A DNA stretch of 54,501 nucleotides, from assembly GCF_000003605.2 (NCBI RefSeq), contig NW_003133354.1, positions 45,289 through 99,789 on the forward strand, in the 5' to 3' direction. Position numbers and translations under genes: made by a program. Positions 1 to 54,326 of this stretch are shown here, piece after piece (the first letter of the stretch is position 1; each line of letters starts with the position of its first letter). The DNA is from Saccoglossus kowalevskii. Its lineage: Eukaryota; Hemichordata; Enteropneusta; Harrimaniidae. The notes beneath the pieces were generated by a model, which had not been told where the DNA came from, searched no databases, and saw nothing but the letters and a program-made list of their open reading frames with translations.

Positions 1-660
1 AAGAAACCTTCGTATTAGGTAAGAACCCTTCGAATTAGGCAAGAACCCTTTGAATTAGGTAAGAACCCTTTGAATTAGGTAAGAACCCTTTGAATTAGGC
101 AAGAACCCTTTGAATTAGGCAAGAACCTTTTGAATTAGGCAAGAACCCTTCGAATTAGGCAAGAACCCTTTGAATTAGGCAAGAACCCTTTGAATTAGGC
201 AAGAACCCTTTGAATTAGGTAAGAACCCTTCGAATTAGGTAAGAACCCTTTGAATTAGGTAAGAACCCTTCGAATTAGGCAAGAACCCTTCGAATTAGGC
301 AAGAACCCTTTCAATTAGGCAAGAACCCTTTGAATTAGGCAAGAACCCTTTGAATTAGGCAAGAAACCTTCGTATTAGGTAAGAACCCTTCGAATTAGGC
401 AAGAACCCTTCGAATTAGGTAAGAACCCTTTGAATTAGGCAAGAACCCTTTGAATTAGGCAAGAACCCTTCAAATTAGGTAAGAACCCTTTGTATTTGGT
501 AAGAACCCTTCATATATGGTAAGAACCTTCGTATTAGATATGAACCCTTCGTAGTTGGTAAGAACCTTTCGTATTAGGTATGAACCCTTCGTAGTTGGTA
601 AGAACCCTTCGTATTATGTATGAACCCTTAGTAGTTGGTATGAATTTTCGATAGTTGATA
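1..660. repeat. 20-bp tandem repeat array (satellite-like)
   Basis: About 32 head-to-tail copies of a 20-bp unit, consensus aagaacccttYgaattaggY, almost exactly in register with every 20 bases from 1 to about 500 and then decaying with small deletions to about 660. The array runs off the left edge. Variant units at position 1 and position 361 are identical (aagaaaccttcgtattaggt) and their next neighbours match too, hinting at a 360-bp higher-order period. No coding potential. Confidence 0.97.
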
Positions 661-6100: not shown

Positions 6101-9100
6101 GAATTATATCTATATAGAAACTGAGTATTAGCTCACTTGGATATTCTCATTAAAAACTATGAAAGGTGTCAACTTTTGTGACGACATGCCTAGTTGTGCA
6201 TCCAAATGAACCGACACAACTGATTGGATAGTACTTATGAGCAGATGCATGCAGCATGTGATCTGATGAAACTGCAACTCTGTATGGAGGCCACTGATTG
6301 GTGGATTGAAACAACATCATGTGTACATGTTTTGGAGAAGGGGACTCATCAATATATAAACTAGATTGTGACGTTAAGAGTTTCCACAACCATGCTAAAT
6401 GCATTACCACCAGTCTATATCTGAGAAAGTGAATCCTGACACCAAATTGTTGAAAAGCCTTGAAGAACACTCGATAATGTAACCAGTTGAGCGAGGCTAA
6501 CAGAGTCATAAACTCAGTATGGTTCGTAACCAGTCTTATGATTGGTTGTTGACACATTCTGAATAGGCCACGCCTCAAACAGTGTCATGCGTTCGGGCCA
6601 ACCGTTAATTATTCATGAATGGAGTCAATTTGTGTAGTTTTCTTGATTTATTCTGCAGATATCGATAAAATATAGGTAAGGCTTTGGCAAAATTTGAAAG
6701 AGCAACTAATATTCTTCAACCAGGTATTTTTTCTAGATTTTATTAATCATTCTGTTTGTCTGTTTTTCCAGTTTAAAAAAAAGCTCGCTGGAGCCTTCAT
6801 CCCTTGTCTATTTCTTAGACGATACACCCCACCCCCACCCACCCCCCGCGTACAGTTGATTATAGTTCCTGGGCTCCCTGTGATGAAATAATCAAATATG
6901 GAACATATGTAATAAGTATTATTATTTACTGTTCACTAAGGTCACATAATCAAAATGTGCTATGAATACATATGTAATACAAGATGAGATGATCTTATTA
7001 AAAACAATAACACTTGCAACTAACCTCAATTTCATCAAACTTCTCATCTAGCATGGCTTGATGTTTCTTCTCTTTCTGTTTTTCCATCCTAGCAACCATA
7101 GGATTTAACATTCTGAACTCTTCACTATCTAAGTCTACTTGGAAGTCAGGATTTTTAAACATAACAGCAAAACGGTCATCTTTCAAAAGGCTAGGTAACA
7201 CTTTCTGAAAAACAATATATGTATTTGTCATCTATACACATGAAGTTGTCATGGCAGTCATGTGGTAGCCATGGCATTCACATGCAGTAGTCATGGAAAT
7301 CACATGTCAGTAGTACAAAGTTCATGAAAAACAAATAATTGTCAATGTCGTATCATTGTCTAATTTTTATACGACTGCCATGTCTTTTATAAATAATGAA
7401 AGATGTATAGTATATACATATAGATGTGTTGCGTATGAAGATTCTGTCATATTACTGTCACTCTTGATGACACAGTCCTGGTCACAATTAGGAGAAATGT
7501 TGTTCATGTCAAAGATAAAAGCAATATGGCTGCAAGTTTGTCATCTTTTGTCTGTTAACAAAATGTCATTGACATAACAGGCAAAATGTACTGTCAACTT
7601 GTGATTTCATGAATTTACGGCATTTTGAAGACGCAATTTTCCAAGAGTCACTGTCATATGATCGTAACAAATTGTATGTAAGAATTAAATGTATTATGTG
7701 GTCAAATTGCATATGCAAATTGGTGGTCATGTGACCAGGTAGATTGTTTATGAGAGAAATTGTAGTATGATTTATAAGTGAATAATAGACTTGACTAGTA
7801 CTCACAAATATACATTTATTAAAGATTAATTAAATGACTTGAAATGCAAATATCCCACTGACCTTTTTCTTTTTTTTATCTATGTTGTCTTCTTTTTCTA
7901 TGATTTTTTGTGCCAATTCTTTATTAACTGCAGGCAATTTCTGTATAACAAGTGAATTTGATGAATATAAAACATATGGCTTATAAGTCAATATTCTCCA
8001 GTAAACCTGCCATTTCACTCATTTCACTTAATGACCTCCAGTAAACCTGCCATTTCACTCAATGACCTGCAGTAATCCTGACATACACTCATTTCACTCA
8101 ATGACCTGCAGTAAACTTGCCATACACTCATTTCACTCAAAGACCTGCAGTAAACTTGCCATACACTCATTTCACTCAATGACCTCCAGTAAACCTATCA
8201 TACGCTCAATGACCTGCAGTAATCCTGACATACACTCATTTCACTCAATGATCTCCAGTAAACAAGTCATACGCTCAATGAACTGCAGTAATCCTGACAT
8301 ACACTCATCTCACTCAATGACCTGCAGTAAACCTGCCATACACTCATTTCACTCAACGACCTGCAGTAATCCTGACATACACTCATTTCACTCAATGACC
8401 TGCAGTAATCCTGACATACACTCATTTCACTCAATGACATCTAGTATATATGCTCAATGACCTACAGTAAACCTGCCATACACTCATTTCACTCAATGAC
8501 TTGCAGTAAACCTGCCATACACTCATTTCACTCAATGACCTGCAGTAATCCTGACATACACTCATTATCTCACTCAATGACCTCTAGTAAATCTGCCATG
8601 GACTCATTACTTCATTCAATGACCTACAGTTATCCTGCCATACACTAATTATTTCAATCAATGACCTCCAGCAAACAGGTGTAACACTCATTACTTAACT
8701 TAATAACTCCAGTAAATCTGCCATACACTCATTAGTTTATTCAATGACCTGCAGTAATCCTGACATACACTCATTATCTCACTCAATGACCTCCAGACGT
8801 AACACTCAATAATCCACTCAATAACTCCAGTAAATCTGCCATATGCTCATTACTTTACTCAATGACTCAACTTTACTCAAGTTAACCTGCCATACATTCA
8901 TTATTTCACTCAATGACCTGCACTAAACAGGCATAGCACTATTTCACTTGATTACCTACAGTGAACTTGTCTGTTACTCGTTATATCATCCAATGACACT
9001 ATTATAAATACATACATCAACTTTCACTCTGTTTGTCCGTGTAGCTTCAATCTTTTCCCGTATTTTCTTCTTTTTATAATCCTCATATGCAAAAGGCTCA

Positions 9101-12100
9101 GCAATTGATTTAGCTTTGTGATACAGTCGGATGTCCATGAAGAAACCATGCATATAGGCACGTAGTAAATTTGTACCAAGTAAGTGTTTTAACCCTGTAA
9201 ACAATCAAACATAGTAACAGTAAATGATACTGTATGACATTGGCTGTGATTTCTTGTACTTAATGAGCTGCAGCATTCACAAGGTATCTCAACAGCAAAT
9301 AGTAAAAGTAAAAATATTGAACACAGTTTACATAATTTATAACTTCTATTTACATATATGAAGAAGGTATCTTTTTTGGACAGCCTATTTCTTTGACAAG
9401 ATTTAGTCCTGATGGTAAAAACAGATCTGGCGGTGTACGACTCAGAGATAAACCAGAGAATATTCATGCAAATAGCAAGGTATATGCATATCGCAGTGCA
9501 TTATGGGAATTCCTTTACTCACCAAGATTTTCTAAATCTTTTTTTGTTACAAACTTATAATCATCATATACAACAGGATTTGGATCTTCTTCAAGTTCTT
9601 CTGTTAAGTTGTCTAAAAATGAACACCATCTTGCTGCAGGACCAAGACTCTAGAAAATAAATATTTTCATTTTGTTTAACTTTTTTTTAATGTTTCATAA
9701 ATTTGTAAATCAACTTGACCATTCACAATGCCTTAGCTGATGCTTCTACATAGGGAATATAGAATTTTTTCGTGTATATTGTAAATTTTTTACACAAAAT
9801 TTATGAAGATTTATAGGTAGCGGCTGTTACCAAATGGCTTCCATATAGACATCAAACTATTTTATGTTTATGCATGCCTGTGCACATTGACTGGTCGGCA
9901 AGAATCGGTTATTTGCATCCAATGAAAAAAGTAAGGACACTGTTAGCTGCCTCTGTTATTAATTATTCATGCAAGTATGTGTTCAAAACAACTTATTGTC
10001 AATGTTATCGCAGCAAATTGCAAGCCTATGTAAATCAGTGAGAGTGTCATTTATTGTTAAATGCTGGTTGGTAAAATAGTAAACATGACAATGTGACAGC
10101 CTATAACCAATGAATAATACCGTAGGCTTAGTATGCTGGAAATTTGTAAGCTCAATAATAGGGTCTGGTTGGTTCAGCAAAGGATAGTTTCTTGGTGTGT
10201 TTGGACATCAGCAGATATAGGCATTGTACTTCAAATGCTGTTATGAAATTATGAAAAGTGGTTGATTCTGTTATAAATTTTATTCATTGTTCTTGTATAG
10301 TAGTCTTCACAATAGTCATAATTCTTGACTGTTTCAGAAGTTATTATCTTGTCTAAAAATTTGAATTAAAACATTCAAATCCATGTGCTAAATATTTTGA
10401 CTTTGATTCAACAAATATTACATACTGTTTTAAAAATAGATTGACTCGAATTGGTGAAATACAGGACAAGTCATGCTCATTGGTGTACAGCATTGGTAAT
10501 TTATAGACACTACACAAAAAATTTTAAAATTACCAAAAGTACGATTTTTGACAGATCAACTTCAAACACTAGACAGGTCATCTATGCTTACAGATTAACC
10601 ATAAATATAAGTTTGATGCTGATCAGCTGAATATTATTGGAGATATTGAATCCACAAGAAAAGATTATGACAATAACTTTACTTTGAGAAAGCCAATGTG
10701 AAAAACTTACCGGAATAAAATAACTTTGCATTTTTGGAGATTCAGTTGCTAAGAATAACAATCCAGTATCAGGTAAAACACATAAATCATTGATACTGCA
10801 GAGTGGTTCAATTGAAGTGTAAGCTTTGCCCTGCAAGTAAAATCACACAATATTAATTGTTTCAAACAAAGAACAAATTTTATAAATTCTTCAACGTTTA
10901 CAACTCAAGCAAAAAAATGTCATCAAATCACCAAAATAATTTTGTCGTTGCAGACATATTCAACTATTTGTTTCTAACTATGTTTATGATAAAATGTACA
11001 AGTAGGATCTGACTTCTTGTGTGTAAGATTTCCTTAGAAGCAACCTCCATTTCCAGCCCTCTATGTTATTCACACAGATTGCAATGATCATAGATTTATT
11101 CAAATTTTTTTATCACAATGTCTGCTGTAATAACTGACAGGCAAGTTTACTAGTTTACATGTATAGTGCAAGGAAGAAACAAAACACACATCATTGACAA
11201 GTAAAATAAGTTTTCATTGACCTTCCTTGCTGTCATATGTAGTGTTACTTACAGTGTCTCTATCCCAAAGTTTCACAATTTTACTGTCAGCAGAAATGAC
11301 TAAATTATGTGAATTGTGAAATTCAATGGATTTGATTGGTAAACCATATTGGTGGTCCTTCACTAAAAGTGGCTTGTCTGATCGGATATCATACAATAAA
11401 ATCTAAAGGAAAAAAAATAAGATAATCATTTTGTGAAAAGAAAAAATAATTTGTTTTTTAAACTCTAGTTCATTTTTTGAAACTTCAATCAGTGACTGTG
11501 CACTAAATTAATAAATGGAATATCAGCCAGAAAGGAATGATAGAATGTTTTCAATTAATTTCTATACAAACTGGAGCGGAATAATTATGTATAACATCTA
11601 TAAACACATAACTCAGAGTTATTCATTAAAGTGGAACAAATCACATACCTATGGCTCATATGGTTTCTACATCTTAAAATTGAAAGTAGATCATTTCATT
11701 TTGGAAGTATTGAAGGGTCTTATCCCCAGACAAACATATCTACAATGTAAGTGATCTTAAAAATAATAAATTCCCCAAGCTTAGTGTCTATTGTCTTACT
11801 TAATTTAGGAGCAATGCTTAAACTCATATTCTGCAGTTTATTTCTTTTTACCATCCATAATTTTAACATTTGATATCATAATCAGGGTTTTTCTAGAAAA
11901 AACTTTTAAGAAGGAGAGCCCCTTTGTTACTATTGGTAACATTCGGTAAGATGCAACAATCAATAAACCTACCTGCCCTGTAGTCGTGCCAACAGCCATA
12001 TTCAAACTACCCCTGAATTTTAATGCTGAGATAGAAGGCATTCCATCCACACTATAAGTAAAAAAAAAGATGATTGAATTAAAACATTATTAATACAATT

Positions 12101-15100
12101 TAACAAGACCCATCACAGTCTAGTGATAATCATTGAATTCTTACTGTGTATGATCTGTCACACTGCTCAATGCACAGTCTAGTATCCCAACTCTGTTCCT
12201 CATTCGGGGATCCCAACATTCCACTCGACCTTCTAGTGTTCCAGTGACAAATAAATTATGAACCGGATTAATTTCACAAACATTTAATGACCTGGAAAAT
12301 ATTTAGGATCATAGTAAATAGTGATTCATTCATAGTGCATTCTGGGAATGATGACACTCATATCTATATATTGCACTGCACTGATGCAATATCTAAATAT
12401 TGCACTGCATGGATGGATGCAATATCTAAATATTGCACTGCATGGATGAAATATCTAAATATTGCACTGCATGGATGAAATATCTAAATATTGCACTGCA
12501 TGGATGAAATATCTAAATATTGCACTGCATGGATGAAATATCTAAATATTGCACTGCATGGATGCAATATCTAAATATTGCACTGCATGAATGCAATATC
12601 TAAATATTGCACTGCATGGATGCAATATCTAAATATTGCACTGTATGGATGCAATAAATAAATAAATATTGCACTGCATGGATGAAATATCTAAATATTG
12701 CACTGCATGGATGCACTATCTAAATATTGCACTGCATGGATGCACTATCTAAATATTGCACTGCATGGATGCACTATCTAAATATTGCACTGCATGGATG
12801 CAATATCTAAATATTGCACTGCATGGATGGATGAAATATCTAAATATTGCACTGCATGGATGCAATATCTAAATATTGCACTGCATGGATGCAATATTCA
12901 AGTCTGCAATTGTAAATATTGTTTGAATTTGTATACAAGTCTATAAATGTACTTACCCTGAATCAGTTACCAGTGAATTAAGGAATCTACCTTGTTCCAA
13001 ATTGAATCTATATACTTCTGCACTGTAAGAGACACAAAATTCACAATTTCTAAGTAAGTAAGTGTAGTTTAGGCTTGCCACAGTGAATCCTCTGAACCTA
13101 CATCAGTCCTTGTTATTCTGAATGTGTGTGTTATCTATGCTGTTATTGATCTTATTTTGGTGACAGTGCTTTCAAAAATCTAAAGTGACATGCAATTATT
13201 CTCTCAGGTTGTAACAGTAATGGGAAGTGGCTCACACAGCTTCTTGGAATGTCATACATTTTTGTATGTTCATTTGTGTTACTAAGTACATGTATGTTGA
13301 AATTCCATGTACAATTAATAGTAGTACAGTACAATAGCTTATGCAAATTAGTGGTGTTTTTATGATCAAAATAGTAATTTTTATGATTTAGTTTACAATA
13401 AATGTTATTTTCAGCTATATGGGCTTCTACTGAAAATGTGCTATTAATAGAGCAAATACAGTATTATGTTTTGCTGTCAAGAAACAATAAAAAAAGAAAA
13501 TTCTGTTGCAAAATTTAGAGAATTAAAGAAGTAGTTATTCTATCAAATTAATTAAAATATAACAGTAAAACAAAAAGAAAGTTACCTTGCCCCAACAAAG
13601 TACAAATCACATGAAGGCTCATGATAGGCTAAATCCCTGCCAAATTTAGGTATTCGCAGTCGATAGTATCTTCCATATTTGGCATGAAATTCTACATATC
13701 TATCTTGCTGAAGAAAAACAACCTGAAAGAAAAGATGACAATAATATGAGCTGCACTACATAAGACAGTCACCTTGTGCCATGCTTACACAGTGGTCACA
13801 CAGAGCCATGTAACACACCAGTTATACTAGGCCATGATTTGTGTATATGTACAATTGTGTGACAGGAATATGATATAAATATATAAAGTTTGAACAACAT
13901 TGGTCAGAAATATTTCACAAATGGTAAAATAGAGACAAAGATAGACAAAGATATTTATTGAAAACATTTATCATAACTAAGCAGCATTTTAACAAATGAA
14001 TTTAATCCCTACCTTACTGTAGTCTTCTGATAAGATATGGAACTTTACAACTGCAGGATAAAATATATGGCAACACAATTACACACAAGTTGACTGAGCC
14101 ATGTCAAGATATCTTAACATGTACATCAGTGAAAGCATGTAGCAGATACATTCTAATAAGATATCTTAACGTGTACATCAGTGAAAGCATGTAGCAGATA
14201 CATGTACATTCTAATAAGATATCTTAACATGTACATCAGTGCAAGCATGTAGCAGATACATTCTAATAAGATGTCTTAACATGTACATCAGTGAAAGCAT
14301 GTAGAAGATACATTCTAATAAGATGCCTTAACATGTACATCAGTGAAAGCATGTAGCAGATACATTCTAATAAGATATCTTAACATGTACATCAGTGAAA
14401 GCATGTAGCAGATACATTCAAATAAGATGTCTTAACATGTACATCAGTGCAAGCATGTAGCAAATACATTCTAATAAGATGTCTTAACATGTACATCAGT
14501 GAAAGCATGTAGCAGGTACATTCTAATAAGATATCTTAACATGTACATCAGTGCAAGCATGTAGCAGATACATTCAAATAAGATATCTTAACATGTACAT
14601 CAGTGCAAGCATGTAGCAGGTACATTCTAAACATCACTCAACATAAGTGAGATTCACATGATTTTGTTGCATCTTTACAACTAAAACTCAGTGTTCTTGA
14701 AACAAACTGTGATACATGTAGAAATTGATGTGCATGTGACCCATACCGGTAGTATGTGTCTATGGCAACCACAGCATATTTCATGGCAACCACACAATGT
14801 TTTTTTTAAACCTACCAGCTACATGTAGATAAAGAGTTATGCATTTTTTTAGCATATTGGAGGCAAAGATAGAATACAATACAATGCATGACATACTTAT
14901 CAGTTTGTTAAGTTTATTAATATTAACGAGGTGACAGATGTATGGACAAAATGGCAACTGGAATCAAACCCAGAAGTCTCTATTTTTTGCACTAAGTTCA
15001 GACAGGGAAAAATTAGCAACATTTACTTTACCTTCGGAATCAAAACATCTTTCAAACTTCATTGAAAGCTGGTTGACATCAAAACATCGAACTCTGGGTT

Positions 15101-27320: not shown

Positions 27321-27672
27321 AGCACAATTATAATATTAAAATTAGTTTTAGAATAAAGCTGTTGGATTTATTAATATTTATTATATATGCGATTTCAGAC
27401 TATCAATTAAATATCATATTCTTTTTAACAAATAAAAAAAATAACGACAGAATATCATTAAAAATGCTCGTTTATGATAAAATATCTTTCTTGGTATGAT
27501 ACATTATTTACTCGTTGTCATAGTAACTGAATTTGACATCGCGAGCTCACAATCATCGTATTCAATGAGAAACATCGATCATATACAGTACTTACTGTCG
27601 ACGACTATATAGATTACAACGCAGTTACCAAGAGTACCGGTTGCGCTTGGCAACGTAGCTGTTCAGTATTCG

Positions 27673-27916
27673 TACGTGTAACGGCTGAGTTACAAGGTAG
27701 CTGCCGAGAATTTGTTTAAAATTTACGTCTGGGTTCAACGTAGCTGTCAATAGTATATTTAACGGCTGGGTTACAAGGTAGCTGCCGAGAGTACGTGTAA
27801 CGGCTGGGTTACAAGGTAGCTGCCGAGAGTACGTGTAACGGCTGGGTTACAACATAGCTGCCGAGAGTACGTGTAACGGCTGGATTACAACGTAGCTGCC
27901 GAGTGTACCTGTAACG
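27673..27916. repeat. 36-bp minisatellite, 5-6 copies
   Basis: Unit gtaacggctgggttacaagg followed by tagctgccgagagtac. The last three copies are nearly perfect, the first two degenerate. A further weak copy may sit at 27640-27672. Confidence 0.94.
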
Positions 27917-27922
27917 GTAAGT
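27911..27922 (+). promoter_or_regulatory. Donor-like site ending the 36-bp array
   Basis: GTAACG|GTAAGT: the last repeat copy runs straight into a consensus 5' splice site at 27917. With the acceptor at 32361-32364 this could define a non-coding first exon of the receptor gene and a 4.4-kb 5' UTR intron. No transcript evidence is available from sequence alone. Confidence 0.3.
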
Positions 27923-32408: not shown

Positions 32409-32810
32409 ATGGCACAAAGAGCAGTCTATATTGTGTATGCAATATCTATGATTTTTAACGCGGGCAAAGTTGTGGGTCAAACAACACCAGAGATCGACAG
32501 TCATATCATCACGCTGATGACAACTGATGGTGTCAGTATTACTACTAAAATGACAAGTCCGGATAATCTGCTACAGGAAGATTTATCAACTGGTTTTAGA
32601 ACATCGCTGTCTCCGGCATCCACCATGTCACCACATGAACAGGATGTTGATAACAAACAGTTGAACATTGTTGGGTTTTTTCCTCTTAGTGGAAACGTTT
32701 GGCGCGCCACAGGAGTTTTACCAGCGTGTGAATTGGCCATTGAACATGTGAACGCAAATGATGACACACTGTCTGGTTACACACTACGTATGGATTATGG
32801 TGACACACAG
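32409..32810 (+). CDS. Receptor exon 1: signal peptide and lobe-1 start
   Basis: Residues 1-134. A hydrophobic start (AVYIVYAISMIF) looks like a signal peptide. LNIVGFFPLSG at 85-95 is the first strand of the flytrap domain, and Cys107 is the first conserved cysteine. The 3' end GDTQ|gtgagt is the source sequence of the adjacent minisatellite. Confidence 0.94.
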
Positions 32811-35800
32811 GTGAGTTACACATTGCATATGGACTATGGGTTGCTGAGGTGAGTTACACATTGCATATGGACTATGGGTTGCTGAGGTGAGTTACACATT
32901 GCATATGGACTATGGGTTGCTGAGGTGAGTTACACATTGCATATGGACTATGGGTTGCTGAGGTGAGTTACACATTACATATGGACTATGGGTTGCTGAG
33001 GTGAGTTACACATTACATATGGACTATGGGTTGCTGAAGTGAATTACACATTGCATATGGACTATAGGTCAATGAGGTGAGTTTTACATTGCATATGGAC
33101 TATGGGTTGCTGAGGTGAGTTACACATTACATATGTACTATGGGTTGCTGAGGTGAGTTACACATTGCATATGGACTATGGGTTGCTGAAGTGAGTCACA
33201 CATTGCATATGGTCTATGGTTTATTGAGGTGAGTTACACATTGCATATGGACTATGGATTGCTCAGGTGATTGACACATTGCATAATATGGACTATGGGT
33301 TGCTGAGGTGAGTTACACATTGCATATGGACTATGGGTTGCTGAGGTGAGTTACACATTACATATGTATTATGGGTTGCTGAGGTGAGTTACACATTGCA
33401 TATGGACTATGGGTTGCTGAAGTGAGTTACACATTGCATATGGACTATGGGTTGCTGAGGTGAGTGACACATTGCATATGGACTATGGGTTGCTGAGGTG
33501 AGTTAGATACTACGTGTTAAATGTTATAAATTGGTTTTGTTATATAAGCCATAAATACAGTGTACCAGTAGATGGATTGTAATATCAGTCATTGTGAACC
33601 GTTGAATGTTTATTTATTTTTATTGATAGTGTAACCCTGGATATGGAACAAAAGTTCTGTTTGAGTTCATTAACTCCAATATTACTTATGTGATGTTGCT
33701 TGGTGCGGGGTGTTCAGGAGTCGCACAACCAGTATCCATGGGAGCCAACCTATGGAATCTTGTCCAGGTAAATTATAAGTTATTATATACACTAGACTAG
33801 CGACAGTCATCAGGTCTAATGTGTTAGTATACTAATTCAAATCAGCAAACGGCTGCGGCATTTTTTGTAAACGCCTTTGCCAGCTTAATAATTGCCATTT
33901 GATGACATCATATAACCCATGTCTTTTTCACTAATACGAAAACCAAATGTTCACCATATAAGTATACGCTATAAATGTCATCATGTTTGGGGAAAATGAC
34001 ATTTATTCTGTCTTAGTAGTGTGAACTCATTACCATAACTCTCGCATATTTCAAAATGTCCTCCAATGATTTGACGGTGAAAATATAAAATCGTATAATT
34101 GTCAATTACGAGGTCTTAAATGCCTTTCTAGCAATGAAGTCGCGAATTAGATCATTCCAAGCATTGTTCAATCGTGCAAGCAACGATTGAACAATGCCAT
34201 AGTAACAGTTAAGAGGCGGGATCACGACAAAGCAGTACGTTATTTGGCATATTAATGCCTCTCAAAAGCTGAGCAGTCCGTGACTGGAACATTGTAACTT
34301 TACATTGAGTCACCTGAGTTGGCCTGTTTCTATGGTAATTTGCAAGTCGGGCTGAAATTTTAATTGAGTAAGATTGACACAACGCTGAGTGGGAAGTAAT
34401 TCGACGAAATAAAATAATTATTATTACGTATATACGTATAACGATCCTAGATTTGAATTAAAATCATCTATAATAATAAGATTTGTTGCATTGTATTCAT
34501 GCACAATACATTTGCCATTCGTACGGTTGTCTCACGTAAATTCACACAAGGTCTCTTCTACCATTACTGAATTTCAACGCGTAATAAGTATGATGTAATA
34601 TATGATCCCTAGAATGGTTAATTAGATACTCTAGACTTAACACTATGTTAGGAAAGTTACAAAGTGCGAGAATCTCGTTAATAGTCAACTGTGCTCCACG
34701 ACAATTAAATGTAACTATTTGTGCAGACATTGTAAGTACATGTCGAACTTGGTTTTAAACTTTTTAAAGTTAACATTAAGCTATTTTTTGTACAAAACTT
34801 TGAATATCGTTGGTTGATGTCATTGGTGAAATAAATAAATTGGCAATAAACATCCTAAATGGTGGATTGTAATGATCACGTTCAATAGCATACATTTGAA
34901 TTAGCAACCCGATTTTTGGTTTACGGTTCACGGTTATAAAACCATCACTATCTTTGACACGTGACCAAATTTAAATTTGCCATGAGCATAAGTTTCTGCA
35001 TAAGTTACCAATGTGGAAAAATGTCGTGGAGTGGGTCACTTTACTCTTTTTTAATTTCTTGGCACAAATTCTGCACGTCTTGCAATAGTTCACGGCTTGG
35101 AGCCGACCGGTACATTCCACGATGTTTCATTTTCATCACTGCTCGTCTTAGGACTTTGTCTGTTTTTATAACTGCCGATATATCTACATGCGTTGTATTG
35201 GCTGGTTGTAACTATGATAAGTCATTCACAATAATTCAAGGGAGATCTTCGGAATCTGTCTCGTGGACCAACTACTAAACAAGGTTTTCTTAGATGATTC
35301 AACCAACCTCTTCGTTCGTAAAGTTATTAGTGCAAAACTTAACGATGACATCAGTCGTAAGGATGACGATTTTATTTACAATAAAGTACCGGATTTCATT
35401 AATTATTGCGTCACTGGCTATATTAGATAATATCTGCAAAGATTAATCATTTTTCTGATAACTACTTTCTCACCCAAAACGTTTTCTAACAACTTTGGCA
35501 TAACAGAATATTATACCTGCCAAAGAAATGTTAAATGTTAAAGCTGGTCGTTCCCTACAAAACCCTATGTTTTATAGTTCAGACGAAAGAAGACAATGTC
35601 TGCATATATACCACGGGTTGTGACAAGGCGAATGACTAGGGAACTATATATCCCATAGACAAGAGAGACTGCGATGTTTCTGTGAAATTGTCGAAATTTG
35701 TGGTCTCCTTAATCTCAAGTTCAACTGGATATAATTTAGGATGGTTGTTTGAAAGTACATCATCATTATCTGAAATTAAATTATTTTTTATTTGCTAAAG

Positions 35801-38800: not shown

Positions 38801-41800
38801 TTCAGATAATCACCAGTAATATTGTTGAGAAACACCAAAACCTTGGAATATTGGCGTATTTTGCCAACAATTCAAACTGCTTGCATAGAACAATCACATT
38901 GAAATTTTCCTATATCTCCGTACTGAACTGTCGTAATATATGTGATACATATGTCTGTAACATCGTCATACATTTGCCTATTGTCTTCGTTACTTGTTTA
39001 ACAATTGTAGACACTTTAATTAGTCATATCCGTGCATTCAGCCAAACTCACTAAAGGTACATATTAAGATATCGTAATCTGTAATTGCAATGGTAACAAG
39101 TGTTCGCCATTCTGAATACACCGTGACTGAAAATAACAATTTTATATATTCGGATTGATTTATAATTTGTATTCATGGTCATTTACAACAGGTCAAACGT
39201 TCATTTTTTTCTGTGTGTTTTTTGCAGATGTCTTATTCAGCATCGAATCCAGCTTTATCGAACACAATTCGCTATCCATCGTTCTACCGAACGTACGCAC
39301 CAGACTCTTTATATAACAACGCTCGTCTGGCCATGATAAAATATTACGGGTGGAGAAAAGTTGCCACACTCCACGAAAACCAAGAACTCTTTTCTTCGGT
39401 AAGTATCGGCTCATATCCATAATCACAGCTATGACAGGCCGTATTCTATTTTAACTGGTCCCTAAACAATTGATACCAGAATTTTAGATGCAGTGCTGGC
39501 TGCACACAATTGTTAATTTGTCGCCTTTTTGGGTAATCAGCTCCTGGATTATATTCGCAAAGCATGTAATACGTGCGTTTTGCAAGTTCGAATACGAAAA
39601 CCCTCTCAGTTATGTTTACACAATCGAACATTTCTGCAACGCTATTTGTTAGAACTGCTTTCAAATGATGAGCACTGCTTTCTAACGTCCACAAAACGCA
39701 TGAGTTTGCTTCTCTTCAGTGCATATCACCGTATATGGTTATGACAATTAAGATATTCTTATAATATACATACTTGGTATTTTATTGTAGCACATTTCAA
39801 TTGTTAGTTACAATTCATATATAGTGATATCATGTTGATGTGGGTTACTTACTATATATGAGTAGCGTGTGTTGTTCATATTTTCCTGTCCTGCTTAAAT
39901 TATTTTTTCTCTTTATTTTTTATCTCATCAGACAATAAACCACCTCAGCTCACTTCTGAGAGACAACGACATTGACATTCTAACGTCAGAAAGTTTTACA
40001 GTCGATGCATCTGAGCAAGTCAGAAACCTCAAGGTATGACAAACGTAATGCAACATTAAAGTTGTTTTAATCGTAAATCTGTTACGTAATACGATTACAG
40101 ACTCCGTGGACTGAACACCATATAAGATTCGTTGAAAAGGATAGTTATGCAGGTGTTTTGAGTTGCAATTACGTGTATAATTATTTGTCTTTAGAATCTT
40201 GTGTGCAACGAAGTGAACGTAAACTCACCATTACATAGAAATAATATTAGCCAACTCGAAATATGCGTGGAATGCAAAGCTTGTGTCCAATCACCAATAC
40301 CTACACTAATTCGTCTAGTCCAGAAATCAGGTGTACGATCAACTAGAACCATCGAGACATCCGCGAAAAAAATCACTCTAGCCAAGCTTACCGAATGACT
40401 GTGATGGCAGGTGACCTGTTTTTCTGTTCAAAATGATGTATAATGTACCCCGTGTGCATATCAATGCGAGAGATACTATACATAAATTAAACTGGTACGC
40501 AACGGTAGTTCGTGTTAGGAAACTGTAATCGTCTGTACAAAATCATTGACTATGTCGTAATTAAAAGAAACTTACACGAGACGAGAGCGTATGAGGTCGG
40601 CATTATTGTTATCTTGTATTATTGTTGTGGGGTAAGGAGTCTAATAAGTTAAATATTTCTTTTCCAGGAGAAAAATGCACGAATAATTTTTGGTAATTTT
40701 TATGAAGATATGGCCCGCCAAGTTTTCTGTGAAGTAAGTCATTTGTATCAAATTAGAATTATGGTAAATATTACCATCGGTCATGTCTGTTGCATCATCA
40801 GTAGCCAGTTTTTATCGGACTGAATTTTCAAATTGCCCGCTCATATTATAATTTTCTGTCAACGTGCTTGGGAACTAATTGCAGAATCGGGGGACAGCAC
40901 AACTCAAGCTACACTTTGTGACACACAAATAATTTTACGTCCCCGACGTATTTCTCCCAACAGAAAAAAAATGAACACTAGGTAAATGACAACTCGCTTT
41001 GAACGAAATTTTGGCGGGCATTTGCATCGAAGGTCAAAGCGAATTAAACTAAGCCAAAAAGCGACATTGNNNNNNNNNNNNNNNNNNNNNNNNNNNNNNN
41101 NNNNNNNNNNNNNNNNNNNNNNNNNNNNNNNNNACCACCACATGACAGCTAACATACAATATTCAATATTCGTATGGTATAGCTGTAAACCAGAACGTTG
41201 AATTGAGTATACCATTCACACATCTGATTTCACTAACACCAATGTCAGAGAGTAAATAATATAACTCAGTTATGTGTATATTTCGTTGTTTACCATAAAC
41301 TGTATTGGTGTGTGGTAGTGTGTTTTCTTGTCATGATTTCACTATCTGACATTTATATATAATTTAGGGTGAACAATGTAGGCTTGAATAGTTATGTGAG
41401 CATACCATTTTATATGCACGTTAAATTCTGTACTAGTTAGTTATGAGTATTCTAATTACCAGGTGTACAAACAAAATATGTATGGCAAACACTACGCATG
41501 GATTATACTTGGCTGGTATAGTCATGATTGGTGGAAGGTGGCTGATCCAAATATTGACTGCACTCCCGAACAGTTGTATACGGCTCTGGATGGTTACATA
41601 GCGACTGAAAACATAGACTTGAGTATTTATAGGGACAGGAAAACAGTGTCTGGATACGTAAGTACTGCTGTCTTCATCATCCAAACGTTGTGTCACTGAC
41701 ATATAGTAGTCTGCCACAGTTATTTTGGTCCCAGAAATACTTCCGGTGTCGACATAATTATGCAAATCAATCACGTGTTAAGACTTAGATCGTGAAAATA

Positions 41801-44800: not shown

Positions 44801-47800
44801 CATATACTCATGACATATAACATATAATTCATTCTATCCTTCCTATAGTAGAAAGTTTCCAGTGATATAATATAGCTTTTGTCTAACATAAATCAACAAT
44901 ATTTATATGTGCGTAATAAAATTACCAAAGAAGTGTATTTTATAATGTTCTACATCAGATGCGAACACCACAAATCGCCGGTTAGAAGACTTTCACTATG
45001 AAGATAACAGCATGAGAAAGGTCTTCATGGATGTGTTAGAAAATCTCAATTTTGAAGGAGTATCTGTGAGTATGATTTACAATATGCCAACACGTTTCTG
45101 TGCGTGTGTGGTGCCTGCTGTCTGTCTTATTTAGACGTTATAAACGGTACCGAGGTTATTTTGTATTTGCAGTGTATTTTTACCAGTGAGCCTTGCTAAT
45201 TTCCCGAAAAACCAAATACCCGAGCGTACCGTTCATTACCTCACTATAATATGAGGGCATGTTGGGCATTCTAATACATTTTCTAATGATAAATTTTCTC
45301 CTCGTGTGGTGCACAATAGAGTTATCTTTTATAATATTAATGTTTTGATGTCGACGTTATTTATCTACTTTCAATTATAAAACATATGTTTTTGAAATCG
45401 ATATTAATGATTATTGTTTAAAACTGCGATTCCATGCATGTTTGCCAACATATTTACTACATTGCTATGAAGACAAACTCACGTTGGTTCACTACGACAA
45501 TGTAGAGGTCAATGCGCGGTGTTACAGTGTAGGTACCAGTCATCTAATTATCACCGGGTATTGATCAGAAATGTGAAAGTGAGCACTTAGAAAAAAGGGA
45601 TGCCTATATAGCAATAGGATATGGGTGTACCACCAGCATTCACCTTCGAAGCTAAAAAACAAAATTGGATACCTTAGATACAGCTTAGAGCACGCCTTCT
45701 GTTTTCCTCATCAGAATGGTTATGTTCTATTGATTGTTTTCAGCTTATTATTTTTTTTCGCTGCTGTTTACCTTATTTCCTATTACATTGCCAGGGACCA
45801 GTGAGTTTTAACCCAAGTGGAGATAGAGAAGGCCTGGTAAATATTGAACAGTTACAAGGTAATGTCATCGACAAGCGAGATTTGAATATTAATTACATTA
45901 CTCATGTGTAATATATAACATGAACATTCCTTCTAATTGATATAATCTATTATATTAAACCCAATATCCCATGTGTCTGTTTCGAAGCTTTTATTAAATA
46001 AATAATTAGATAAATCAGCCGATAAAGCAGTTGGAATCGTAAACTGTGTGCGCGTCTCAAGCTTCTTATTCCTTGAACACAGGCTTCTTATTCCTTGAAC
46101 ACGGATTGTCTAGAGTTCATCGACACCGATAAATGACTTTGTTGATTTCGTAGGATATAACAAGATTTAAAGTTACATTAATATTCTCCTTAACTTTGAA
46201 TATTTACATTTCGAATTGCAGACAAACGCATGCAGTGCAGTTTTGGTAAAATTAAAAACTTTCAAATACTGTATTGCGATTAGAACATACTTAGGGGAAA
46301 CTATCGGTATACAGTGGAACCATAAAAATTTATCATAAACACTTATTTGAAAAGAAATATTTTCAACAAATGAACCACGTTTTTACATTTTTCTAGATGA
46401 CGTCACGATTTAAAATTGCGCACAGCGACTAGTTGATAACGAGCATGTGTAATTGGCATGGTACATGTGATGAATTATTATATGACCTATGATATATTAT
46501 TTATATTTGACGGACGTAATATTTATAACAATAAAATGACCTAATTAACGTGCTGTGCTGAACGAGCATAAATATATATTTATAAATTCAAAATTGAAAC
46601 TGAAACATAGTTTCAATTGGCCGAAGGAATAACATTGGAAGATTTCCATTAACGTCCAATGAACCCACTGATTGGCTGGATGGATTCAACTGCCATTGAC
46701 ATTTGAGAACATTTTTAAAAAATGAAGCGATTGTGGTCGTGATAATAATGTTATTTTATTTTAAATGTAATTGTTTGATATTTCCCCCAGATGGTAAAGA
46801 AGTAGTTGTTGGCGTATACTTTCCACAAGTAGAAAGTCTAGACGAACAGCTACGATGGGATATGGGTGACAAAGCAGTGCAGTGGAAAGGTGGGTTACTG
46901 CAGAGTCATTGGGTAACAATCCAGTGCAGTCCAGTGGAAAGGTGGGCTACTGTGGGGGCATTGAGTAACAGTGCAGTAGAAAGGTAGGTTACAGTGGGGT
47001 TATTAGGTAACAGTGCATAGGAAAGGTGGGCTACTGCGGAGACATTGGGAAACAATCCAGTGCAGTGAAGTAGAGTGGTAGGCTACTGTGGAGACATTGG
47101 GAAACAATCCAGTGCAGTGCATAGGAAAGGTGGGCTACTGCGGAGACATTGGGAAACAATCCAGTGCAGTGAAGTAGAAAGGTAGGCTACTGTGGAGACA
47201 TTGGAAAACAGTGCAGTGCAGTGGTAAATTGGGTCACTATGGGACATTGGCTAGCAGTGCATATGAAAGGTAAGCTAATGTAGGGTCATTAGATAACAAA
47301 GCGGTGTAGTGGTAAGGTGGGCTACTATGGGGACATTGAGTAACAATACAGTGCGTTTAACTATACTAAATACTTGCTATTTTCTATCTGCTATCTGCTA
47401 TTTCCATCTGTAAGCTGATATCATACACGTAGGAGATTACTTAACCCGTTGATAAGGGGCGCCAACGCATATGTTGTAATGTCGAATTCTGAAGATACGC
47501 GAAGCCCCTTCCCACAAACACAAACACAATATATTTGGCACTGACTATCCGGTGAGTTGTAATGAAGAAGAATGTCCTTTGGAAGAAAAATATTATGTCG
47601 TTTGTGTGTTTCTTTTTGAAACTAAACTTGTTGTCAGATACGAACGCTTTACATTAGCAAGAATATTGTGTTCCAAAACTTCAGTTGTGATTGCGATTTT
47701 GCGATAATTGTCAATTTCCCGTCACGTCGCCACTTTTACAGATTTAATATATCCCGAGTCATCATATCGCTTTAATACAGCTATAGTCTACGTTTGGTTC

Positions 47801-53945: not shown

Positions 53946-54326
53946 ATGATACATATGTTTTCTGTGCAAGCATTTACAAATCGGTGTGACTAAAGAATCC
54001 AAACTAAACTGTTCTGTACAACATGTGGAGTATCAGGGGTAAATTCTTCTCTTCGGGGTTCTCCACACTTGTCAGAGGGGAATCTCGTCTCGTCTCTATA
54101 TCGCGTCCCCTCGAGGTGCGGGATCGGGAAAGTCATATGATACATATGTTTTCTGTGCAAGCATTTACAAATCGGTGTGACTAAAGAATCCAAACTAAAC
54201 TGTTCTGTACAACATGTGGAGTATCAGGGGTAAATTCTTCTCTTCGGGGTTCTCCACACTTGTCAGAGGGGAATCTCGTCTCGTCTCTATATCGCGTCCC
54301 CTCGAGGTGCGGGATCGGGAAAGTCA
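53946..54326. repeat. 190-bp direct tandem duplication
   Basis: 53946-54135 is repeated at 54137-54326 (offset 191) with no mismatch that I can find by eye. The unit is GC-richer than its surroundings. Its identity implies either a very recent duplication or an assembly artefact. Confidence 0.93.

What the first reader, a model, noticed from the sequence alone, without database searches (positions are those of the whole stretch)
32770..33505. Minisatellite made from an exon end and its splice donor (receptor intron 1)
Seen: the 38-bp unit starts at the first intron base and every copy carries GAG|gtgagt, and its body resembles the last 35 bases of exon 1. So the true donor is followed by about 18 near-identical donors, one every 38 bases. 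Inference: the array grew from the exon-intron junction itself. Because 38 is not a multiple of 3, use of a downstream donor changes frame and would usually truncate the receptor; different donors could give variable ends or a soluble fragment, or the copies could compete for U1 snRNP.
Basis: partly seen in the sequence, partly recalled or inferred. Interest (0 to 1): 0.75.

Follow-up and report, generated by a model that had tools for sequence, protein, structure and literature searches.

The report
Repeated splice donors after exon ends
In an animal GABA-B-type receptor gene the end of exon 1 and its splice signal have been copied 18 times in a row at the start of the next intron, and similar arrays sit at another exon of the gene and at exons of other genes in this genome; they are most likely tolerated by-products of DNA duplication, but they offer a natural test of how cells choose a splice site.

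Summary
Intron 1 of a GABA-B-like receptor starts with 18 tandem units (17 of 38 bp, one of 41; 32811-33497); the true donor is followed by 18 copies, 14 of them exact GAG|GTGAGT. The unit derives from the exon end: 21 of 25 bases match in register, 0 of 5000 shuffles score as well, and the exon tail is conserved GABA-B coding sequence. A second such array follows exon 9 of the same gene. In the own genome (572 Mb), contigs C1-C2826 hold 17 listed AGGTGAGT arrays against 7 control arrays; of 12 with a readable flank, 4 (this one included) abut exons confirmed by homology, 2 more are likely and 2 possible. 'Variable ends or soluble fragment' fails here: 17 of 18 downstream donors, and intron retention, give the same stop at 32850. 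Donor bases vary as much as others, so no selection is seen. Best reading: exon-junction minisatellites tolerated because the first copy keeps the gene intact. Human precedent: IFI6, where downstream copies are used. No RNA data were available, so donor use is untested.

The parts
32409..32810 (+). Exon 1 (coding, 134 codons, phase 0 at its end) of a GABA-B-like receptor; bases 32776-32810 are the source of the repeat unit
   Evidence: Open frame and donor; PDB match of exons 1-3 to GABA-B1, E 8.1e-34; Pfam ANF_receptor for exon 1 alone is weak, E 0.069, under its cut-off
32811..33497 (+). Array 1: 18 tandem units (17 x 38 bp, 1 x 41 bp), each starting with a copy of the donor
32811..32816 (+). 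True donor CAG|GTGAGT, predicted U1 pairing -12.2 kcal/mol
   Evidence: U1 5' end recalled
32850..32852 (+). TGA in frame with exon 1, inside the second donor; shared stop for donors 3-19 and for intron retention
33498..33537 (+). Last donor copy and a worn stretch that again resembles the exon tail (12 of 14 bases); weak, 80 of 5000 shuffles do as well
33630..33767 (+). Exon 2 (46 codons)
   Evidence: Pfam ANF_receptor E 0.0071, under its cut-off
46792..46889 (+). Exon 9 (my numbering), near the end of the ligand-binding ectodomain; its tail is the source of array 2
46890..47340 (+). Array 2: true donor AAAG|GTGGGT and nine further donor-like copies at 46942, 46984, 47026, 47078, 47130, 47182, 47224 (worn), 47270, 47317; spacing 42-52

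Best explanation
A stretch of about 34 bases of exon 1 plus the first bases of intron 1 was duplicated in tandem and the copies multiplied into a minisatellite inside intron 1 (origin shown by sequence; the DNA mechanism, slippage or unequal exchange, is inferred). Every copy carries a donor, most of them near consensus, so a pre-mRNA of this gene offers 19 donors 38 bases apart. The array is tolerated because its first copy is the untouched exon end and donor: when 32810 is joined to 33630 all copies leave with the intron. Any other choice gives a non-productive mRNA. It is one instance of a recurrent event in this genome, seen also at exon 9 of the same gene and at exon ends of other genes. 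I expect mostly first-donor use and little function (inferred; no RNA data).
For: Exon-derived unit in register; exon tail conserved in GABA-B; second array of the same build at exon 9; exon-abutting arrays at PSMD13, a TYW2/TRM5 gene and a second GABA-B gene; 17 donor-motif against 7 control-motif arrays on the same contigs, P 0.032. For tolerance and not function: donor columns vary as much as others, 5 of 144 against 22 of 540 cells, p = 1; the true donor has the best predicted U1 pairing; 18 of 18 downstream donors give a truncated frame.
Against: In the human IFI6 precedent downstream repeat units are used as donors (PMC4526556). In the ER-alpha example of PMC6002489 the intron-proximal of two equal donors is normally used, and that paper cites faster proximal splicing with competing upstream sites (title only); such a rule would favour the last copies over the first. 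Triples as such are not enriched over control, 141 against 121. Flanks of control arrays were not read. For the second GABA-B gene (C2616) the exon tail is not significantly like the unit, 75 of 500 shuffles.
Confidence: 0.6

Rival explanations
1. Splicing brake: the copies load U1 and draw splicing to non-productive donors, so receptor output falls as copy number rises. Nearly all products share one stop and most would be expected to decay.
For: 14 of 18 copies pair with U1 at -10.8 kcal/mol or better; the 38-base period leaves room for a U1 on each copy, since a 35-base footprint is quoted in PMC6002489; the array RNA is less folded than shuffles, z +2.19; the shared stop lies 72-645 bases before the junction for donors 4-19 and 34 for donor 3; downstream copies are used in IFI6.
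Against: No sign that donor bases are kept; no expression data.
Confidence: 0.2
2. Array 2 at exon 9 makes a secreted receptor: donors from 47026 on, or retention of that intron, end the protein after the ligand-binding domain with up to 32 extra residues; a soluble ectodomain could bind ligand or partner like human GABAB1e.
For: Frame read; exons 7-9 align to residues 328-404 of the 420-residue GABA-B1 ectodomain chain 4mqe_A; GABAB1e lacks the membrane part and is secreted according to passages of PMC2987798.
Against: No transcript; the next exon is not placed, so the outcome of donors 46942 and 46984 is unknown; the ectodomain copies themselves are worn and irregular.
Confidence: 0.08
3. 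Ladder for stepwise removal: each AG|GT boundary acts as acceptor and donor, so the intron is taken out in steps with no effect on the mRNA.
For: All 18 unit boundaries read A-G or A-A before GT; 15 of 18 have AG|GT.
Against: Pyrimidine share before the boundaries is 0.40-0.60 against 0.73 at the true acceptor; a 38-base intron is shorter than spliceosomes usually accept (recalled).
Confidence: 0.03
4. Chance: an ordinary intronic minisatellite that happens to contain a donor and to resemble the exon.
For: The genome is rich in minisatellites, 28 in 109.5 kb, and control-motif arrays exist.
Against: Register and similarity; second exon of the gene; exon ends of other genes.
Confidence: 0.04

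Closest known systems
Human IFI6 (6-16, G1P3) minisatellite with multiple splice donors (Turri, Cuin, Porter 1995, NAR 23:1854; not held; known here from its title and from passages of PMC4526556, and PMC3618361)
   Same: Tandem units at an exon-intron boundary that offer serial donors
   Different: IFI6 units are short and in frame (12 bases, recalled) and downstream units are reported to be used; here the unit is 38 bases, exon-derived and out of frame, and use is unknown
[quoted passage not shown]
   Same: Tandem duplication of a segment with AG|GT creates new splice sites
   Different: Here the duplicated segment spans an existing donor; what grows is the start of an existing intron, no new intron is made
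Repeated ~150-bp block at the 5' end of intron 1 of MSTN-2 in Sparus aurata (PMC3045353, passages)
   Same: Repeats at the start of a first intron, with length alleles and further predicted splice sites
   Different: One or two copies; no exon origin and no serial donors stated in the passages seen
Human GABAB1e and other truncated GABAB1 isoforms (PMC2987798, passages)
   Same: Receptor without membrane part by alternative splicing; relevant to array 2
   Different: No repeat array involved in the passages seen

Membership tests
Minisatellite providing multiple splice donors (IFI6 type) | Tandem units each holding a donor-like site | tested here: met
   18 units; 14 of 18 downstream donors exact GAG|GTGAGT
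Minisatellite providing multiple splice donors (IFI6 type) | Array starts at the exon's own donor | tested here: met
   32810|32811
Minisatellite providing multiple splice donors (IFI6 type) | Downstream units used as donors in mRNA | not testable with these tools
   No RNA data held
Minisatellite providing multiple splice donors (IFI6 type) | Unit keeps the reading frame (recalled for IFI6) | tested here: not met
   38 bases and a stop in the second donor; it is met by the TYW2-like array C2447, 36 bases and open
Intron gain by tandem genomic duplication | A new intron lies between two copies of an exonic AGGT segment | tested here: not met
   The duplicated part spans an existing donor; the acceptor at 33630 is not a copy of the unit
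Recursive splice sites | Pyrimidine-rich acceptor directly before the donor | tested here: not met
   Pyrimidine share 0.40-0.60 against 0.73 at the true acceptor
GABA-B receptor (class C GPCR) | Ligand-binding ectodomain like GABA-B1/2 | tested here: met
   PDB E 8.1e-34 for exons 1-3, 6.5e-10 for exons 7-9
GABA-B receptor (class C GPCR) | Class C seven-helix membrane part | tested here: met
   One membrane exon: PDB GABA-B E 8.7e-11; Pfam 7tm_3 E 2e-07 but 31.4 bits, under its cut-off of 33.5; the whole membrane part was not assembled

The most novel reading that the evidence does not exclude
Exon-donor minisatellites form a genome-wide class in this animal whose copy number tunes how much correctly spliced mRNA a gene makes; in this receptor gene two such arrays act together, array 1 as a brake and array 2 as a switch to a secreted ligand-binding ectodomain.
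Probability: 0.12. Interest if true: 0.85.

Novelty: new variant of a known kind. Interest (0 to 1): 0.52.

Why it matters
Choice between competing 5' splice sites is mostly studied with two or a few sites in designed constructs (general knowledge). Here nature supplies 19 near-identical sites in a row in one intron, a second array in the same gene and further ones in other genes of one genome, so the rules of donor choice could be read from junction counts. It also shows an evolutionary route: a duplication that spans a donor can grow without breaking the gene, because the first copy stays intact.

Tried and rejected
Soluble receptor from array 1: rejected, one shared stop. RNA structure hiding the donors: not supported, folds less well than shuffles (first 211 bases only). 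Selection on donor columns: none seen (a 3-base insert in one unit was removed before the count). Exon copied from the array instead of the reverse: rejected, the exon tail aligns with GABA-B1. Copies of the unit elsewhere in the window: none with a 23-base probe at up to 3 mismatches (17 hits, all in the array). Copies of exon tail plus donor after the other 11 of 13 receptor exon ends: none in the next 600 bases. Donor-bearing arrays in the other parts of the contig and in two other contigs that I fetched: of 28 arrays in 109.5 kb without N (53.6 kb of it the window) 3 hold two or more AGGTRRG, all in the window. Number of triples as a sign of enrichment: rejected, 141 against 121; with gaps 12-42 it is 422 against 216 but dominated by one long array. 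Not answered: the AGGTAAGT census and a protein search for paralogues in the own genome. Not done: flanks of control arrays. Papers: ten answered searches of an open-licence library; I saw listings, and passages of ten papers; none of what I saw describes exon-junction minisatellites as a genome-wide class, which does not show that none is in print.

Full report
What is there. On the + strand from 32409 it holds a GABA-B-like receptor gene. Exons 1-3 joined match GABA-B1 chains of the PDB (best E 8.1e-34), exons 7-9 match GABA-B ectodomains (best 6.5e-10) and a membrane exon matches GABA-B chains (best 8.7e-11). Pfam on single exons is weaker: of 8 exons only exon 3 passes a cut-off (ANF_receptor, 8.1e-13). 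I placed 13 exons by open frame, splice consensus and homology; some exons are missing and none has transcript support.

Array 1. Intron 1 begins with 18 units, 17 of 38 bp and one of 41 bp (32811-33497). Of the 18 donors after the true one 14 are exact GAG|GTGAGT and four are altered. Predicted pairing with the U1 5' end (sequence recalled) is -12.2 kcal/mol for the true donor, -10.8 to -11.6 for the 14 and -2.5 to -8.2 for the four. The true donor is the strongest of the 13 exon ends scored; there the ends of exons 5-8, 10 and 13 are off by 1-2 bases against the later table, so their values are rough. AGGTGAGT occurs 15 times on the + strand of the window, all in this array with the true donor counted, and 0 times on the - strand.

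Origin. The unit matches the exon tail in register, 21 of 25 bases without a gap; 0 of 5000 dinucleotide shuffles reach the score and the best of 200,000 permutations has 18 matches. Against it: the last ten exon bases are not clearly alike, and another place in the window (39801, gapped) scores 16 against 17. The tail encodes GYTLRMDYGDTQ, which aligns with DYELKLIHHDSK of GABA-B1 just before the conserved CxPG, so the exon came first. After the last donor a worn stretch again looks like the exon (12 of 14 bases), but 80 of 5000 shuffles do as well, so this is weak. The first four units are identical (two later ones, 33308 and 33422, are too) and others differ from the consensus by up to 5 bases, which hints at recent copying on the exon side (inference).

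What use of the copies would do. Donor 1 gives the open frame. Donor 2 adds 38 bases and stops in exon 2. Donors 3-19 and retention of the intron all read the TGA at 32850-32852, which lies in the second donor itself, and give one product...GDTQVSYTLHMDYGLLR. The stop lies 34 bases before the junction for donor 3 and 72-645 for donors 4-19, so most would be expected to decay (rule recalled). The product holds about 50 residues of the ligand-binding domain (48 aligned positions), too little for a soluble receptor. So 'variable ends or soluble fragment' does not follow, while a brake on productive splicing remains possible.

Second array in the same gene. The exon that I number 9 ends GTGGAAAG|GTGGGT at 46889|46890 and is followed by nine more donor-like copies to 47317, spaced 42-52 bases; one (47224) is worn. 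Its unit is built from the exon 9 tail: the first copy beats 5000 of 5000 plain shuffles. Of 13 exon ends only exons 1 and 9 have such copies in the next 600 bases (0 of 300 shuffles each; the other 11 show 14 to 299 of 300). If the twelve shorter arrays of the window lay at random about 0.09 would span one of the 13 donors; two or more has P 0.004 (a rough sum made after the fact). Exon 9 lies near the end of the ectodomain, so donors from 47026 on, or retention, would end the protein after the ligand-binding part, with 32 extra residues; for 46942 and 46984 the outcome is open because the next exon is not placed.

Recurrence in the genome. Triples of AGGTGAGT with gaps of 6-31 occur 141 times and those of the reversed motif 121 times, so triples are not enriched; with gaps of 12-42 they are 422 and 216, but one long array on C1113 dominates the listing. 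Each listing shows the first 100 places. On contigs C1-C2826, where both listings can be compared, these are 17 distinct donor-motif arrays against 7 control arrays, counting one per contig (binomial P 0.032). I fetched the upstream flanks of the 16 others. Five cannot be judged (gap, or flank still repeat: C166, C2826, C2794, C1492, C2182). Of the 12 remaining, ours included, 4 abut an exon confirmed by homology: C2511 (this one); C1646 (PSMD13, E 1.1e-13; 31 of 37 bases of tail and unit alike); C2447 (TYW2/TRM5 methyltransferase, Pfam 8.2e-07, above its cut-off; 25 of 26 aligned bases and a 3-base gap); and C2616 (a second GABA-B gene, E 1.7e-20, whose exon ends at VFCE as exon 4 does here). 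For C2616 the tail is not significantly like the unit (75 of 500), so there only the position at the donor is shown. C1912 and C1734 look like exons with a matching tail (0 of 500 each) but have no homologue in Pfam, NCBIfam or the PDB. C1737 (tail not significant, 276 of 500) and C2717 (0 of 500) are possible. C998, C1169, C1298 and C2171 show no exon. Tail-to-array similarity alone is also high in arrays without an exon (C1298, C2171, C2182), since flanks hold worn copies; so homology of the exon is the real evidence. Flanks of control arrays were not fetched. In C2447 the unit is 36 bp and open, so each further donor would add 12 residues in frame.

Function. Donor columns vary as much as the rest: 5 of 144 against 22 of 540 cells, p = 1. 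The RNA of the first units folds less well than shuffles (z +2.19, 197 of 200 shuffles fold at least as well). According to passages of PMC6002489 U1 protects 23 exon and 12 intron bases, 35 in all, so 38 bases leave room for a U1 on each copy; the same passage cites Hodson 2012 (not held) for U1 binding competing donors alike in the first complex, the choice coming later. In that paper's ER-alpha example the intron-proximal donor is normally used, and in IFI6 downstream repeat units are used (PMC4526556). Both speak against my expectation that the first donor wins. Only RNA can settle it.

Comparison. The nearest precedent is the human IFI6 minisatellite with multiple donors (original not held). 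What I did not find in it, or in the papers seen, is an exon-derived, frame-breaking unit, two arrays in one gene, and recurrence at other genes. The event also recalls intron gain by tandem duplication of AGGT (PMC3443670, passages), but works on an existing donor.

Verdict. Real, exon-derived and recurrent; most likely tolerated rather than useful; a good natural test of donor choice. Interest 0.52.

Noticed in passing
window 1-629: A 20-bp array whose units read TTAG|GTAAGA in part (9 AGGTRRG on the + strand); it begins at a run of N (L002), so whether it starts at an exon cannot be seen.
   Followed up: partly
window 27672-27917: Another 38-bp array; just after it the sequence reads TAACGGTAAGTTC, a donor-like site. 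No exon was identified.
   Followed up: no
window 7860-14700, - strand: Exon-like open frames that recall NOL10 (recalled, no search made); arrays at 8020-8931, 12360-12897 and 14106-14630 lie among them, the first strongly skewed (-0.50 on the + strand).
   Followed up: no
window 41489-41506: 18 bases in exon 5 equal the exon 1 tail at 17 of 18 positions (ACACTACGCATGGATTAT against ACACTACGTATGGATTAT), seen by eye; probably chance.
   Followed up: no
own genome C2447, L035: TYW2/TRM5-like exon followed by an in-frame 36-bp donor array, open in all units read; would add GELETNIVDLYT repeats.
   Followed up: partly
own genome C2616, L036: A second GABA-B receptor gene has a donor array at the exon that ends VFCE, the exon 4 position of the window's gene.
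   Followed up: partly
own genome C1113 and C3269: Very long arrays, one of about 41-bp units with AGGTGAGT (C1113, from 515 to beyond 9249) and one of 34-bp units with the reversed motif (C3269, to beyond 31000).
   Followed up: no
window 53946-54326: Perfect two-copy tandem duplication of 191 bp; recent, or an assembly artefact.
   Followed up: no
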